Shown: positions 24,501 through 39,584 of the stretch, piece by piece
Position numbering within the stretch: the first letter of the stretch is position 1
How the letters are laid out: every line of letters starts with the position of its first letter
Source of the DNA: Streptomyces corallincola
GTDB lineage: Bacteria > Actinomycetota > Actinomycetes > Streptomycetales > Streptomycetaceae
Reading direction: 5' to 3'
Assembly (NCBI RefSeq): GCF_019104725.1
Contig: NZ_JAHRXF010000003.1
Span: forward strand, 62,001 to 126,000
Length of the DNA stretch: 64,000 nucleotides
Notes under the pieces: model-generated
The model's database searches: none
What the model was told of the DNA's origin: nothing
Seen by the model: only the letters and a program-made list of their open reading frames with translations
Program-made: the position numbers and the translations under genes

Positions 24501-24722
24501 ATGGGCTGTACTCACGGACAGGGCATGGCGTTCGCCGGGCCGCTGGACGAGTACCGGCTGCGCCGGGCGCTCGGCGCGGGCCGCTACCCGGTCCCGCACG
24601 CCCCCGCCGAACCCGCTTTCGCGGGTGGGGGAGCGGGGATGTACCGGCAGGGTGTGTCCGCCGTCCTCGGTGGTGGAAGCGGCCTCCGCTCACATGATGA
24701 GACGGCCGTCCCACCCACTTGA
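21534..24722 (+). CDS. cdgF: Membrane PAS-GGDEF-degenerate-EAL protein
   Basis: A 1062-residue inner-membrane signalling protein. After a disordered Pro/Ala-rich N-terminus (~85 aa) come about eight hydrophobic helices, a PAS domain (about 460-560: HFRSLVQGSSDVIMIAAPDG), a GGDEF domain with intact [11 protein letters not shown] (near 664) and an intact RxxD I-site (RQGD), then an EAL-like domain. In the latter EAL is replaced (GVSAQARW), ITE by LSD, and DDFGTG by DGFGGG. It is therefore predicted to synthesise c-di-GMP but not degrade it. The place just before ilvB matches S. coelicolor CdgF as I recall it. ATG 21534 is chosen; GTG 21504 is an alternative. Confidence 0.85.
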   Translation: MDERSDAAEPPPTTLGNDGAQARSPHRPPGPAPQDGGPGTAGAEARARSGTDREAPVNAPAPATASLDAPRAHPPGAPLPPRPPVSGDGARLVQQLLLALICAGYVVGSLLDWGSSRVALVMGDFGLSAAAGTAAVSCFLYARSTRVRFRPAWLLFSLSSAMAALGNGIWGWYEVVLQERVPSPSCADLFFLCFAPPAIVGLLVLAKRPLTRAGWICLGLDAWLIGGSLLTLSWSLALAQAARFDGPSVAHTALSLAYPLLDIVLVSMVLALHFRRSPGNRTAVNTAIGALALTVMCDALFTSPLLHSSYRSGQLLDAGWFAGSLLLAYAPWAAPRRVPAADGAGRTPDAHGRVVHEHVPGQRPAAHPGRSAAAPASPGDQPRYPAGRPITGSLAALTPYLAAAVCTLGILYNVLNGRRPDHVVLITAGAVVLALVIRQGIMLIDNITLTQELAQKENHFRSLVQGSSDVIMIAAPDGVLLYVSPAAAKVYGRGAEELVGTELAALIHGDDLGCVIHEVRRFLAASPAEEPTTRIECRFRSGEGGWLNVESTVNRHHGGLIFNSRDVTERVRLQAQLQHNAEHDPLTDLPNRALFTRRVQQALSGRRVTDRGGSLRGTAVLFIDLDGFKGVNDTIGHQAGDELLVQAARRLQDAVRQGDTASRLGGDEFAALIVGDGTRDLADRERDILDLADRLRTTLSQPYAIDGNDVRINASIGVAFAEPGLGAGELLRNADLAMYRAKAAGKGRVELYRPQMQQDVVRKAELAGRLRAALHDGEFALLHQPVVRLDTGRVAGVSAQARWRSSQGVLFTPAEFLRVAEDADKTAELDRWVLQEAVQQAAERAVTGVVVPVTVRMSARRLLDRTVPFGSVEALLTRYGLPPGALVVELSDSDPRTPLDELERRLTALSRLGVRIALDGFGGGCAAITALRRLPVDILKLDRSLVEGVVESARLHKITSGLLRIAGDLGLQSVAEGVDLPEQVVALRAMGCTHGQGMAFAGPLDEYRLRRALGAGRYPVPHAPAEPAFAGGGAGMYRQGVSAVLGGGSGLRSHDETAVPPT

Positions 24723-24755: not shown

Positions 24756-24797
24756 ATGCGCACCCGAATTCTCGTACTTGGACAGCGCGTCGGCTGA
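24756..24797 (+). CDS. ilvB attenuator leader peptide
   Basis: A 13-residue ORF, MRTRILVLGQRVG. The core Ile-Leu-Val-Leu plus a later Val places all three branched-chain amino acids in a four-residue run, encoded by ATT CTC GTA CTT; several of these codons are rare in this GC-rich genome. GGAGG lies 9 bp upstream. Stalling here when branched-chain aminoacyl-tRNAs are scarce would control the downstream terminator. Similar ilvB leaders have been described in actinobacteria. Confidence 0.85.
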   Translation: MRTRILVLGQRVG

Positions 24798-24833
24798 GCT
24801 GGGACGCACCGGAGACGATCCGGAACTCCCAGC
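24798..24833 (+). promoter_or_regulatory. Leader stem-loop before the ilvB terminator
   Basis: GCTGGGA (24798-24804) pairs with TCCCAGC (24827-24833), and an inner CCGGA/TCCGG helix extends the stem. It begins just after the leader stop codon and is a candidate pause or regulatory hairpin. Bases 24784-24803 can also pair with 24828-24851, giving an alternative fold; which one is the antiterminator is unresolved. Confidence 0.55.
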
Positions 24834-24851
24834 GACCCTCACCGGCGCGCT

Positions 24852-24885
24852 CCCCTCGCTTGCCTCACGGCACGAGGGGTTTTTT
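24852..24885 (+). terminator. ilvB attenuator terminator
   Basis: CCCCTCG (24852-24858) pairs with CGAGGGG (24873-24879), with an inner TGCC/GGCA helix, followed by six T residues (24880-24885). A genuine T-run is rare in this window and marks a rho-independent terminator about 100 bp before ilvB. Confidence 0.85.
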
Positions 24886-24983
24886 GTTGCACAGGCAGCC
24901 CCCACAGCACGGCACGCACCGTCACCACACGGCCCACACCGTCCGAAACCTCGCAAAAACCTCAGCATCGAGAAGAGAAGCCG

Positions 24984-26834
24984 ATGACCGAGCAGGCCAC
25001 CGGGGCGCATCCGCAGCCCCGGCCCCGATCCGGAGGACCGCAGTCCGCCCCCGTCGAGCACGTCACGGGCGCGCAGTCCCTCATCCGCTCGCTTGAAGAG
25101 GTCGGCGCTGACACGGTGTTCGGCATCCCCGGCGGCGCGATCCTGCCCGCCTACGACCCGCTGATGGACTCCACCCGCGTCCGCCACGTGCTGGTCCGCC
25201 ACGAGCAGGGCGCCGGACACGCGGCCACCGGGTACGCGCAGGCCACCGGCAAGGTCGGCGTGTGCATGGCCACCTCGGGGCCCGGTGCCACCAACCTCGT
25301 CACCCCCATCGCCGACGCCCACATGGACTCGGTGCCGCTGGTGGCGATCACTGGCCAGGTCGCCGCCAAGGCGATCGGCACGGACGCCTTCCAGGAGGCG
25401 GACATCGTCGGCATCACGATGCCGGTCACCAAGCACAACTTCCTGGTCACCAAGGCCGAGGACATCCCCCGGATCATCGCGCAGGCGTTCCACATCGCCT
25501 CCACCGGCCGCCCCGGCCCGGTCCTGGTGGACATCGCCAAGGACGCCCTCCAGGCGCGGACCACCTTCAGCTGGCCGCCCGTCATGGACCTGCCCGGCTA
25601 CCGCCCGGTGACCAAGCCGCACGCCAAGCAGATCCGCGAGGCCGCCAAGCTGATCACCACCGCCAAGCGGCCCGTCCTCTACGTCGGCGGCGGGGTCCTC
25701 AAGGCGCACGCCACCGCCGAGCTGAAGGTCCTCGCCGAACTCACCGGCGCGCCCGTCACCACGACCCTGATGGCGCTCGGCGCGTTCCCCGACAGCCACC
25801 CGCTGCACGTCGGCATGCCCGGCATGCACGGCGCCGTCACCGCCGTCACCGCACTCCAGAAGGCCGACCTCATCGTCGCCCTCGGTGCCCGCTTCGACGA
25901 CCGCGTCACCGGGAAGCTCGACAGCTTCGCGCCGTACGCCAAGATCGTGCACGCCGACATCGACCCGGCCGAGATCGGCAAGAACCGCACCGCCGACGTG
26001 CCGATCGTCGGGGACGCCCGCGAGGTCATCGCCGATCTGGTGCAGGCCGTGCAGAAGGAGCACAGCGAGGGCGGCCAGGGCGACTACACCGCCTGGTGGA
26101 GCGACCTCAACCGCTGGCGCGAGACCTACCCGCTCGGCTACGACCAGCCCGCCGACGGCTCCCTCTCCCCGCAGGCCGTCATCGAGCGCATCGGCCAACT
26201 CGCCCCCGAGGGCACGGTGTTCGCGGCCGGTGTCGGCCAGCACCAGATGTGGGCGGCGCACTTCGTGCAGTACGAGCGCCCCGCGAGCTGGCTCAACTCC
26301 GGCGGCGCCGGGACGATGGGCTACGCGGTCCCGGCCGCGATGGGCGCCAAGGCGGGCGTCCCCGACCGCACCGTCTGGGCGATCGACGGCGACGGCTGCT
26401 TCCAGATGACCAACCAGGAACTCACCACCTGCGCGCTGAACAACATCCCGATCAAGGTCGCCATCATCAACAACGGCGCCCTCGGCATGGTCCGCCAGTG
26501 GCAGACCCTCTTCTACAACCAGCGCTACTCCAACACCGTGCTGCACAGCGGCCCCGGCGCCGACGGCAAGCAGCCGAGCGCCGGTACCCGCGTCCCGGAC
26601 TTCGTGAAGCTGTCCGAGGCGATGGGCTGCCACGCCATCCGCTGCGAACGCCCCGAGGACCTCGACAAGGTCATCGAGGAGGCCAACGCGATCAACGACC
26701 GCCCGGTCGTCGTGGACTTCATCGTCCACGAGGACGCGATGGTCTGGCCGATGGTCGCCGCCGGTACCTCCAACGACGAGATCATGGCCGCCCGCGACGT
26801 CCGCCCCGACTTCGGCGACGGCGAAGACGACTGA
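24984..26834 (+). CDS. ilvB: Acetolactate synthase large subunit
   Basis: The ThDP enzyme that joins two pyruvates, or pyruvate and 2-oxobutyrate, in valine/leucine and isoleucine synthesis. 616 residues: PYR domain with [15 protein letters not shown] and catalytic E74 in [15 protein letters not shown], central FAD-binding domain, PP domain with the ThDP motif [22 protein letters not shown] at 24984 follows GAGAAGAGAAG. First structural gene of ilvB-ilvN-ilvC behind a leader-peptide attenuator; ilvN starts 26 bp later. Confidence 0.98.
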
Positions 26835-37634: not shown

Positions 37635-37719
37635 CCCCGCGCGCCGCTCGCCGGTGGTCCCGGCACCGCCGAGCGGACCGCATCCTGAGACAAACGGTCC
37701 ACCGCCGCTCCCGCTGTGC

Positions 37720-37725
37720 CAGACT
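37720..37725 (+). promoter_or_regulatory. -10-like element of the cimA leader
   Basis: CAGACT, preceded by TGTGC, ends 6 bp before the GTG at 37732. This spacing would make the leader transcript start at that GTG (leaderless). No good -35 is visible, so confidence is low. Confidence 0.35.
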
Positions 37726-37731
37726 GGCCAC

Positions 37732-37782
37732 GTGCCCTCGTTCGCCATGATTATCGGCAGCAGGCGCGCCGGTCCGCAGTGA
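37732..37782 (+). CDS. cimA attenuator leader peptide with tandem Ile codons
   Basis: Sixteen codons from GTG 37732: MPSFAMIIGSRRAGPQ, or eleven from ATG 37747. Two adjacent isoleucine codons (ATT ATC, 37750-37755) are the only branched-chain codons. The stop is followed within 6 bp by a set of mutually exclusive hairpins ending in a T-run. This is the arrangement expected for isoleucine-controlled attenuation of the downstream citramalate synthase. Confidence 0.8.
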   Translation: MPSFAMIIGSRRAGPQ

Positions 37783-37788
37783 CCATCC

Positions 37789-37863
37789 CGCACGACCAGG
37801 TGCGAGTGGACACCGTCGTCCTCGACCCGCGCGCAGACCTCTCGCACCCGCGAGGGGTTTTTT
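37789..37863 (+). terminator. cimA attenuator: antiterminator and T-run terminator
   Basis: Terminator: CCTCTCGC (37838-37845) with GCGAGGGG (37850-37857), one G-U pair, then six T (37858-37863). Antiterminator: GGTGCGAG (37799-37806) is a perfect 8-base complement of CTCGCACC (37841-37848), which overlaps the terminator's 5' arm. A local hairpin CGCAC/GTGCG (37789-37804) would sequester the antiterminator strand. The three structures exclude one another in the classic attenuation order. Confidence 0.8.
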
Positions 37864-37973
37864 CGTTTTCCGGCCCACCCACACCCGGGAACGGCGGCGC
37901 GACGGAGGCCAGGGGACGGTGGAGCCGGTCCATCCGGTATGACCGAAGCAGTGACCATCAGGAGCCTTGAGAC

Positions 37974-39584
37974 ATGACCGAGACGGCAACCAACGAGCTG
38001 GACGACTCGTTCCACGTCTTCGACACCACGCTGCGCGACGGGGCGCAGCGCGAGGGCATCAACCTCACCGTCGCGGACAAGCTCGCCATCGCACGGCACC
38101 TGGACGACTTCGGCGTCGGCTTCATCGAGGGCGGCTGGCCGGGCGCCAACCCGCGGGACACCGAGTTCTTCGCCCGCGCCCGCCAGGAGATCCGCTTCAC
38201 CCACGCCCAGCTCGTCGCGTTCGGCGCCACCCGCCGCGCCGGCGCCCGCGCCGCCGAGGACCCGCAGGTCAAGGCGCTGCTCGACTCCGGCGCCGAGGTG
38301 ATCACCCTGGTCGCCAAGTCGCACGACCGGCATGTGGAGCTCGCCCTGCGCACCACCCTGGACGAGAACCTGGAGATGGTCCGCGACACCGTCTCCCACC
38401 TGCGGGAACAGGGCCGCCGGGTGTTCGTGGACTGCGAGCACTTCTTCGACGGCTACCGCGCCAACCCCGCGTACGCGAAGTCCGTCGTCCGGACCGCCGC
38501 CGAGGCGGGCGCCGACGTCGTCATCCTCTGCGACACCAACGGCGGGATGCTCCCCGCCCAGATCCACGCCGTCGTCGCCACCGTCCTCGCCGACACCGGC
38601 GCCCGGCTCGGCATCCACGCCCAGGACGACACCGGCTGCGCGGTCGCCAACACCCTCGCCGCCGTGGACGCGGGCGCCACGCACGTGCAGTGCACCGCCA
38701 ACGGCTACGGCGAGCGGGTCGGCAACGCCAACCTGTTCCCGGTGGTCGCCGCGCTGGAGCTGAAGTACGGCAAGAAGGTGCTGCCCGACGGGCGGCTGCG
38801 CGAGATGACCCGTACGTCGCACGCCATCGCCGAGGTCGTCAACCTGACGCCCTCCACCCATCAGCCGTACGTGGGTGTCTCCGCGTTCGCCCACAAGGCG
38901 GGGCTGCACGCCTCCGCGATCAAGGTGGACCCCGACCTCTACCAGCACATCGACCCCGAGCGGGTCGGCAACACCATGCGGATGCTCGTCTCCGACATGG
39001 CCGGACGCGCCTCGATCGAGCTGAAGGGCAAGGAACTCGGCATTGACCTCGGCGGCGACCGGGAACTGGTCGGCCGGGTGGTCGAGCGGGTCAAGGAACG
39101 CGAGCTGAAGGGCTACACCTACGAGGCCGCCGACGCCTCCTTCGAGCTGCTGCTGCGCGCCGAGGCGGAGGGGCGCCCGCTGAAGTACTTCGACGTGGAG
39201 TCCTGGCGGGCCATCGTGGAGGACCGGCCCGACGGGACCCACGCCAACGAGGCCACGGTCAAGCTGTGGGCCAAGAGCGAGCGGATCGTCGCCACCGCCG
39301 AGGGCAACGGGCCGGTCAACGCGCTGGACCGGGCGCTGCGGGTGGCCCTGGAGAAGATCTACCCGCAGCTCGCCAAGCTCGGCCTCGTCGATTACAAGGT
39401 GCGCATCCTGGAGGGCGTCCACGGCACCTCGTCCACCACACGGGTACTGATCTCCACCTCCGACGGGTCGGGGGAGTGGGCCACCGTCGGCGTCGCCGAG
39501 AACGTCATCGCCGCGTCCTGGCAGGCGCTGGAGGACGCGTACACCTACGGGCTGCTGCGGGCCGGGGTGGACCCCGCCGCGTAG
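37974..39584 (+). CDS. cimA: (R)-citramalate synthase
   Basis: A 536-residue enzyme of the LeuA/CimA family that condenses pyruvate with acetyl-CoA to citramalate, an entry to 2-oxobutyrate and isoleucine that bypasses threonine deaminase. It shows HVFDTTLRDGAQREGINLTV (metal Asp, catalytic Arg), IEGGWPGANPRDTEFF, CDTNGGMLPAQIHAV, the metal HAQDDTGCAVANTLA region, and the C-terminal LeuA dimer regulatory domain (about 420-530). The GINLTVADKLAIARHLDDFG pattern and length favour the CimA branch over 2-isopropylmalate synthase. The Ile-Ile leader peptide independently supports an isoleucine role. Many databases call such proteins 2-isopropylmalate synthase. Confidence 0.92.
   Translation: MTETATNELDDSFHVFDTTLRDGAQREGINLTVADKLAIARHLDDFGVGFIEGGWPGANPRDTEFFARARQEIRFTHAQLVAFGATRRAGARAAEDPQVKALLDSGAEVITLVAKSHDRHVELALRTTLDENLEMVRDTVSHLREQGRRVFVDCEHFFDGYRANPAYAKSVVRTAAEAGADVVILCDTNGGMLPAQIHAVVATVLADTGARLGIHAQDDTGCAVANTLAAVDAGATHVQCTANGYGERVGNANLFPVVAALELKYGKKVLPDGRLREMTRTSHAIAEVVNLTPSTHQPYVGVSAFAHKAGLHASAIKVDPDLYQHIDPERVGNTMRMLVSDMAGRASIELKGKELGIDLGGDRELVGRVVERVKERELKGYTYEAADASFELLLRAEAEGRPLKYFDVESWRAIVEDRPDGTHANEATVKLWAKSERIVATAEGNGPVNALDRALRVALEKIYPQLAKLGLVDYKVRILEGVHGTSSTTRVLISTSDGSGEWATVGVAENVIAASWQALEDAYTYGLLRAGVDPAA

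What the first reader, a model, noticed from the sequence alone, without database searches (positions are those of the whole stretch)
37732..37863. cimA attenuator with Ile-Ile leader and explicit mutually exclusive hairpins
The leader carries tandem Ile codons and no Leu or Val. Bases 37799-37806 are perfectly complementary to 37841-37848, which overlap the terminator arm, and a third hairpin can block that pairing. The isoleucine-only control codons predict that the downstream enzyme serves isoleucine, hence citramalate synthase rather than a 2-isopropylmalate synthase.
Basis: partly seen in the sequence, partly recalled or inferred. Interest (0 to 1): 0.65.

Follow-up and report, generated by a model that had tools for sequence, protein, structure and literature searches.

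The report
Isoleucine-sensing attenuator before citramalate synthase
A short RNA leader in front of an isoleucine-making gene in a Streptomyces bacterium very probably lets the cell switch the gene off when isoleucine is plentiful; relatives occur in many actinobacterial families and seem to work with two back-to-back hairpins that share no sequence, unlike the textbook version.

Summary
The attenuator is real. Leader start, an in-frame Ile codon, a stop and an intrinsic terminator are kept in all 149 genus genomes with cimA (150 searched). The enzyme scores as citramalate synthase (TIGR00977, 629.8 bits, cut-off 450); a separate LeuA exists. A covariance model finds the element in 177 of 394 class-sample genomes, 137 of 354 outside the genus; 34 of 40 hand-picked loci outside the genus precede cimA. 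Some ilvB and leuS leaders are related. In 56 far elements only two helices co-evolve: P1 (window 37764-37774/37824-37834) and the terminator. They lie 0-1 nt apart and share no nucleotide; P1 3' arm/terminator pairing is weaker than in arm swaps. A ribosome at the first Ile codon leaves P1 free; at the stop it mostly covers P1. Best reading: P1 is the antiterminator and acts by abutment; its sign and the steric step are inferred. No Rfam 15 match; no cimA attenuator in the paper listings searched.

The parts
37681..37691 (+). conserved upstream box CATCCTGAGAC (CATNNTGAGAC), possible regulator site
   Evidence: TGAGA 148-149 of 149 per base; 6 copies in the whole genome, 3 for the reversed-pattern control; also before the ilvB leader at 24693-24703; a looser form in only 5 of 61 far elements
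37715..37725 (+). extended -10-like TGTGCCAGACT ending 6 nt before the leader start codon (suggests a leaderless leader transcript)
   Evidence: TGTG, both A and the last T kept in 139-149 of 149 per base; in far elements a NANNNT 5-8 nt before the start codon taken by the script in 40 of 61; start site itself not tested
37732..37782 (+). leader ORF MPSFAMIIGSRRAGPQ, GTG start, TGA stop
   Evidence: start 149 of 149, Ile codon in frame 149 of 149, stop 149 of 149 (TGA 148, TAG 1), at this place in 122 and 7-11 nt later in 27 with a shifted C-terminus
37750..37755 (+). control codons Ile-Ile (ATT ATC)
   Evidence: first codon ATT 149 of 149; second Ile in 130 of 149; ATT is 4 of 199 Ile codons in 11 window ORFs
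37764..37774 (+). P1 5' arm (proposed antiterminator hairpin)
   Evidence: pairing invariant in the 45 genus members counted, so untested there; covariation outside the genus
37824..37834 (+). P1 3' arm, directly before the terminator
37776..37816 (+). P2, variable hairpin inside P1 that holds the leader stop codon; not in the short far forms
   Evidence: folds of 116 distinct middles; base pair 37780-37812 with P above 0.5 in 93% of elements without ribosome; 3 of 8 pairs with two-sided changes
37835..37860 (+). intrinsic terminator T (core 37837-37845/37850-37858) with U-run 37858-37863
   Evidence: 9 core pairs formed in 45 of 45, one of them with two-sided changes; covariation in far members
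37974..39584 (+). cimA, citramalate synthase
   Evidence: TIGR00977 629.8 bits, cut-off 450
24756..24887 (+). related leader of ilvB in the same window (MRTRILVLGQRVG), same P1-T layout
   Evidence: matches model R1 (E 1.6e-4 in 253 kb) and weakly R2 (E 0.04 in the whole genome); fold

Best explanation
It is a ribosome-mediated transcription attenuator that senses charged isoleucyl-tRNA and controls cimA. RNA polymerase starts at or near the GTG and a ribosome translates the 16-residue leader. When isoleucine is short the ribosome waits at the Ile codons; its leading edge then lies just before the 5' arm of P1, so P1 folds. P1 ends directly at the first nucleotide of the terminator stem. Because the foot of a terminator stem must close inside the exit channel of RNA polymerase (established knowledge, recalled), a helix joined to it without a linker should hinder its closing, so transcription reads on into cimA. 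When isoleucine is plentiful the ribosome moves on to the stop codon and covers the P1 5' arm; the terminator closes and transcription stops. Shown by sequence comparison: a kept leader ORF and Ile codon, P1 and terminator as the only two co-evolving helices among those tested in far members, 0-1 nt between them, no sign of a shared-strand antiterminator, the position of the codons relative to P1. Inferred: leaderless start, translation and stalling, P1 being the 'on' structure, and the steric way it acts.
For: Leader conservation. Element in 149 of 149 genus genomes with cimA, in 80 of 80 family-sample genomes outside the genus, in 137 of 354 class-sample genomes outside the genus, and at 67 of 80 named cimA loci (30 of 43, 37 of 37; some of these are the same genomes as in the genus sample). 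P1 covariation in 50 distinct far arm pairs: positions 2-6 paired in 94-100% against 49-69% with arms swapped between species, 0 of 1000 swaps as high. The terminator covaries likewise at most positions. P1-terminator gap 0 nt in 49 and 1 nt in 7 of 56 far elements. Own 2:3 duplex -4.32 against -4.95 kcal/mol for swaps (200 of 200 swaps at least as stable), 1:3 (197 of 200) and 2:4 (200 of 200) likewise weaker. Geometry, with a mask reaching 12 nt past the first base of the A-site codon: mean masked nt of the first 10 of P1 are 1.1 (first Ile), 4.4 (last Ile), 9.7 (stop) in 56 far elements and 0.0, 1.9, 7.7 in 149 genus elements; the terminator starts at least 20 nt past the stop in 56 of 56 far elements. 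Of 18 ilvB, leuS, ilvA-like and ACT-like leaders folded, 16 have P1 and terminator 0-1 nt apart. Published analogues give the sign: M. tuberculosis ilvB1 (antiterminator proposed to form on stalling; codon change gives low, unresponsive expression; PMC13236596, passages) and C. glutamicum ilvBNC (antiterminator and terminator with adjacent bases; PMC11857589, passages and section 12).
Against: No expression data. In solution P1 and terminator are compatible: the completed terminator forms with mean P near 1 in every masked state, so exclusion needs the polymerase. Before the terminator is complete, a ribosome at the stop lets its 5' arm pair with upstream bases (mean P 0.51, above 0.5 in 45% of genus elements), which could favour readthrough when isoleucine is plentiful. 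With a mask of 14 nt a ribosome at the last Ile codon covers 6 or more of the 10 P1 nt in 80% of far elements. In 18% of genus elements (later stop) a ribosome at the stop masks fewer than 6 P1 nt. 19 of 149 leaders have a single Ile codon. In S. coelicolor ilvB, changing the control codons is reported to have had no effect (earlier work as described in PMC1262725). A paper argues that hairpin clusters induce termination (PMC8355165, passages). Both search models contain P1 directly before the terminator, which may favour finding abutting forms. Arm-swap tests ignore phylogeny. Two ilvB leaders depart: L339 has a gap of 3 nt and the best fold of L343 shows no P1-T.
Confidence: 0.55

Rival explanations
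1. Same attenuator with the opposite role of P1: P1 is a protector or pause hairpin that stacks on the terminator and helps termination; a ribosome stalled at the last Ile codon blocks P1 and somehow lowers termination.
For: P1 and terminator coexist in the folds; with a longer footprint the stalled ribosome does reach into P1; hairpin clusters are said to induce termination (PMC8355165, passages).
Against: The ribosome at the stop masks P1 more than the stalled one, so P1 would be lost when isoleucine is plentiful; the strand freed from P1 has no co-evolving partner among those tested.
Confidence: 0.2
2. Classical four-region attenuator: the freed P1 3' arm pairs with the terminator 5' arm (2:3), e.g. 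37831-37836 with 37841-37845 in the window.
For: Such a weak hairpin exists in the window (-3.9, extended -7.1 kcal/mol) from nearly invariant bases; with a ribosome at the second Ile codon the terminator 5' arm pairs upstream with mean P 0.35 before the terminator is complete.
Against: In far members own 2:3 pairing is weaker than swapped; terminator arms such as CUCACG/CGUGAG (L199, L202) do not fit it; the completed terminator (-16.8) is far more stable.
Confidence: 0.12
3. The first reader's antiterminator 37799-37806/37841-37848 is the switch.
For: Perfect 8-bp complement in the window; in the window it forms before the terminator is complete when the P2 5' arm is masked (P 0.96).
Against: Exact in 2 of 149 elements; nearly matched by shuffled middles; the short far forms lack P2. 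It forms with the ribosome at the stop, the wrong sign.
Confidence: 0.03
4. The leader RNA is mainly bound by a protein or small molecule and the ORF is incidental.
For: Strong base-level conservation of P1 and terminator in the genus; codon mutants of S. coelicolor ilvB without effect (as described in PMC1262725).
Against: Start, frame, Ile codon and stop are kept through indels; codons differ with the gene (Ile for cimA, Ile-Leu-Val-Leu for the window's ilvB, Leu for leuS, read by eye).
Confidence: 0.08

Closest known systems
C. glutamicum ilvBNC attenuator and the Corynebacterium ilvB-II motif (PMC11857589, PMC10272879; passages, one section of the first)
   Same: leader peptide with branched-chain codons, intrinsic terminator, in C. 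glutamicum an antiterminator hairpin whose base is adjacent to the terminator base
   Different: there antiterminator and terminator are said to overlap at a GCC trinucleotide and an anti-antiterminator is proposed; here no shared nucleotide, Ile codons, cimA
M. tuberculosis ilvB1NC attenuator (PMC13236596, passages)
   Same: stalling at branched-chain codons is proposed to let an antiterminator form, a ribosome at the stop to mask it; intrinsic terminator
   Different: LVVI codons, ilvB; structures described as mutually exclusive; not compared base by base here
Streptomyces ilvB, leuS and trp leaders (PMC1262725 parts 1-2 of 3; PMC8079986 section 14)
   Same: short leader ORFs (often leaderless) with terminators; the window's own ilvB leader and the genome's leuS leader fold with P1 directly before T
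   Different: no cimA leader in the S. lividans table of 8 nor in the parts of the 2005 survey read; figures not seen
E. coli trp attenuator (recalled)
   Same: ribosome position decides between terminator and readthrough
   Different: regions 2:3 and 3:4 share a strand; here the two covarying helices do not

Membership tests
Classical ribosome-mediated attenuator (trp type) | short leader ORF | tested here: met
   start, frame and stop kept in 149 of 149; translation itself not measured
Classical ribosome-mediated attenuator (trp type) | control codons for the pathway end product | tested here: met
   Ile codon 149 of 149, tandem in 130; far: 2 or 3 Ile codons in 52 of 56
Classical ribosome-mediated attenuator (trp type) | intrinsic terminator before the gene | tested here: met
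Classical ribosome-mediated attenuator (trp type) | antiterminator sharing a strand with the terminator | tested here: not met
   no co-evolving 2:3, 1:3 or 2:4 helix in 56 far elements; P1 and T share no nucleotide
Classical ribosome-mediated attenuator (trp type) | expression responds to the amino acid | not testable with these tools
   needs reporter or RNA-seq
C. glutamicum-type adjacent ('fast') attenuator | antiterminator and terminator bases adjacent and overlapping in a few nt | tested here: inconclusive
   adjacent yes (gap 0-1 nt in 56 of 56), no overlap seen
Citramalate synthase (TIGR00977) | score above curated cut-off | tested here: met
   629.8 against 450; LeuA models listed below their cut-offs
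Citramalate synthase (TIGR00977) | pyruvate rather than 2-oxoisovalerate as substrate | not testable with these tools
   enzyme assay needed; separate LeuA present
Known Rfam 15 families | match to a covariance model | tested here: not met
   0 matches in the window at gathering and 0 at E 0.1 in 11 related loci

The most novel reading that the evidence does not exclude
A widespread actinobacterial attenuator design with only two hairpins that share no sequence: the antiterminator works purely by abutting the foot of the terminator so that it cannot close in the RNA exit channel. One scaffold with exchangeable control codons serves cimA (Ile), ilvB (Ile/Leu/Val), leuS (Leu) and perhaps ilvA-like and small ACT-domain genes.
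Probability: 0.4. Interest if true: 0.75.

Novelty: new variant of a known kind. Interest (0 to 1): 0.58.

Why it matters
It gives a regulatory element, without a match in Rfam 15 here, for the citramalate route of isoleucine synthesis in many actinobacterial families, and links it with ilvB and leuS leaders; the mode of action of the Streptomyces ilvB leader has been called unclear (PMC1262725). If abutment is confirmed, mutual exclusion without shared base pairs is something that searches for alternative pairings would miss.

Tried and rejected
Classical 2:3 antiterminator 37831-37836/37841-37845: considered, rejected for the family because far members do not support it. NdgR as owner of the CATNNTGAGAC box: the motif printed in PMC4340878 does not match by eye, and in the passage of its target table the S. 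coelicolor tag SCO5529, which I recall as cimA, is not listed; left open. Equilibrium folding to decide the switch: uninformative, the completed terminator always forms. Own-genome hits of the far model at E 0.23 and 0.26 (L314, L315) are tRNA-Lys genes followed by a terminator, taken as chance; the leuS hit (L316, E 0.28) scores no better and rests on its neighbour and fold. Rows dropped: 5 of 61 far elements whose best fold had an enclosing helix (L195, L284, L275, L230, L211); L134, a second cimA copy of G024, has no element.

Literature: ten searches. None of their listings showed a cimA attenuator in actinobacteria; subscription journals and supplements were not searched. PMC8914203 and PMC8632094 were searched for terms only, PMC10331944 and PMC8222616 likewise.

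Full report
Setting. The window lies in a 6.39-Mb genome. Its genus is taken as Streptomyces: contigs of genus members have the same lengths as named Streptomyces contigs among the cimA loci (e.g. G024:C19 and L243, G123:C20 and L247). The region holds an ilvB gene (24984-26834; 73% identical over 493 aa to L331, which scores 927.6 with the acetolactate synthase model NF005860, cut-off 881), leuB and ilvE, then the finding, then cimA 37974-39584. cimA scores 629.8 bits with TIGR00977 (cut-off 450) and below cut-off with the LeuA models listed. A separate LeuA lies on another contig (827.9 bits, cut-off 697.4).

Observation. To test them, upstream regions were taken for the cimA copies found in 150 genus genomes. 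One genome, G081, has no good cimA match (best E 2e-11). The 150 regions are 149 primary copies, one per remaining genome, and one second copy (L134, genome G024). A profile made from 130 of them found the element in 149 of 150, all but L134.

Leader. In 149 aligned elements the start is GTG (144) or ATG (5), the ATT codon is in frame in 149, its distance from the start is 18 nt (146) or 21 nt (3), and the stop is TGA (148) or TAG (1). In 27 elements the stop lies 7-11 nt later, with a different C-terminus. So the peptide end is free while the frame to the Ile codons and a nearby stop are held. Codon pairs are ATTATT 97, ATTATC 33, ATTATG 18, ATTACG 1. ATT is 4 of 199 Ile codons in 11 window ORFs. 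Against exclusiveness: 113 of 149 leaders contain Leu, and 97 of 149 have it at position 2.

Structure in the genus. The consensus fold has P1 (37764-37769/37829-37834 and 37771-37774/37824-37827) directly followed by the terminator. The middle is variable but folds into a hairpin P2 (116 distinct middles; its base pair 37780-37812 has P above 0.5 in 93% of elements). Counted on 45 divergent members (chosen of 149), the given structure has 97.7% paired cells (shuffles 96.8%) and 10 cells with two-sided changes (shuffles 2.0); P1 does not vary at all there, so it is untested within the genus. Masked folds do not settle the switch: the completed terminator forms in every state, and before completion a ribosome at the stop lets the terminator 5' arm pair upstream with mean P 0.51, a result against a simple reading.

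Beyond the genus. A covariance model R1 from these 45 hits 101 of 101 genomes of the family sample (21 of the genus, 80 outside; 17 of 17 genera) and 177 of 394 of the class sample (40 of the genus; 137 of 354 outside; 71 of 137 genera) at E 0.01; the class search scored only 8 candidates per genome, and its hits need not all be cimA leaders. From the listed matches I picked 40 loci outside the genus by hand for spread. In 34 of 40 a cimA match starts 6-225 nt downstream. The other six: L212 is ilvB (as L331); L223 is threonine-ammonia-lyase-like, below the curated cut-offs; L224, L226, L228 and L230 are followed by small proteins with weak ACT-domain matches below the cut-offs. Of 80 named cimA loci, 67 carry the element at E 0.01: 37 of 37 and 30 of 43. 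Of the 13 misses 12 are MAG records and one is Frankia; one (L305) has only 78 nt upstream. Examples with it: Thermobifida fusca, Nonomuraea, Nocardioides, Kribbella, Kitasatospora, Glycomyces.

Two helices only. Most far elements are short (about 80-105 nt) and lack P2. Folding 61 of them gave separate P1 and terminator in 56; five had an enclosing helix and were left out. The gap is 0 nt in 49 and 1 nt in 7. P1 pairs change in concert (positions 2-6 of 50 distinct arm pairs paired in 94-100%, swapped arms 49-69%, 0 of 1000 swaps as high). Terminator pairs do so at 9 of 11 positions; position 4 never varies and at position 6 130 of 1000 swaps are as high. Duplexes between P1 3' arm and terminator 5' arm are weaker in real combinations (-4.32) than in swapped ones (-4.95, 200 of 200 at least as stable); 1:3 (197 of 200) and 2:4 (200 of 200) likewise. 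So the comparison gives no sign of a strand shared by antiterminator and terminator. These tests do not correct for phylogeny, and the models used for finding contain P1 next to the terminator.

Geometry. P1 starts 8-15 nt, mostly 11-14, after the first Ile codon in far elements and 12-14 in the genus. With a footprint ending 12 nt past the first base of the A-site codon, a ribosome at the first Ile codon leaves P1 nearly free and one at the stop covers 6 or more of its first 10 nt in 98% of 56 far and 82% of 149 genus elements. For the last Ile codon the answer depends on the footprint assumed (far: 12% at 12 nt, 80% at 14 nt). The terminator starts at least 20 nt past the stop in 56 of 56 far elements.

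Relatives in other leaders. A second model R2 built from 46 short forms outside Streptomyces (of the 61) finds the window's cimA leader (64.7 bits, E 6e-12 in the genome) and, weakly, its ilvB leader (25 bits, E 0.04); its leuS leader (L316, E 0.28) scores no better than two tRNA-terminator chance hits. In 16 further genomes R2 finds cimA, ilvB and leuS leaders; in G081, which lacks cimA, only the ilvB one. Four leuS loci score above the leuS_bact cut-off of 548.4; L316, a fragment, has 463.3. Of 18 such leaders folded (8 ilvB, 5 leuS, 1 ilvA-like, 4 ACT-like), 16 have P1 and terminator 0-1 nt apart; ilvB L339 has 3 nt and L343 folds otherwise.

Known work. The S. lividans list of 8 leaders has none before cimA (PMC8079986, section 14 read); the 2005 survey (PMC1262725, parts 1 and 2 of 3 read) has none in those parts, calls the ilvB mode not clear and reports codon substitutions without effect. 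The nearest mechanism papers were seen in passages (PMC13236596, PMC10272879, PMC8355165) or passages and one section (PMC11857589). Rfam 15 gives no match for the window at gathering or for 11 related loci at E 0.1.

Verdict. A true isoleucine attenuator of cimA, widespread, with a structure other than the one proposed. That P1 is the 'on' structure follows from geometry and from the sign proposed for ilvB leaders; that it acts by abutment is my inference and the bold part.

Noticed in passing
window 37681-37691 and 24693-24703; L153: The box CATNNTGAGAC precedes both the cimA and the ilvB leaders and also lies between lysA-like and hom-like genes (named by eye); 6 copies in the genome. A looser form is in only 5 of 61 far elements. 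Possible shared regulator site for isoleucine genes.
   Followed up: partly
window 37884-37935: A further conserved block between terminator and cimA in many genus members, missing in L097 and L109; function unknown.
   Followed up: no
L224, L226, L228, L230: The same Ile leader stands before small stand-alone proteins with weak ACT-domain matches (below Pfam cut-offs), perhaps regulatory subunits of acetolactate synthase.
   Followed up: partly
L223: Same element before a threonine-ammonia-lyase-like gene in one genome (below curated cut-offs).
   Followed up: partly
G024 (L063 and L134): This genome has two cimA copies, only one with the attenuator.
   Followed up: no
G081: A genus member without a good cimA match; the far model finds only its ilvB leader.
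   Followed up: partly
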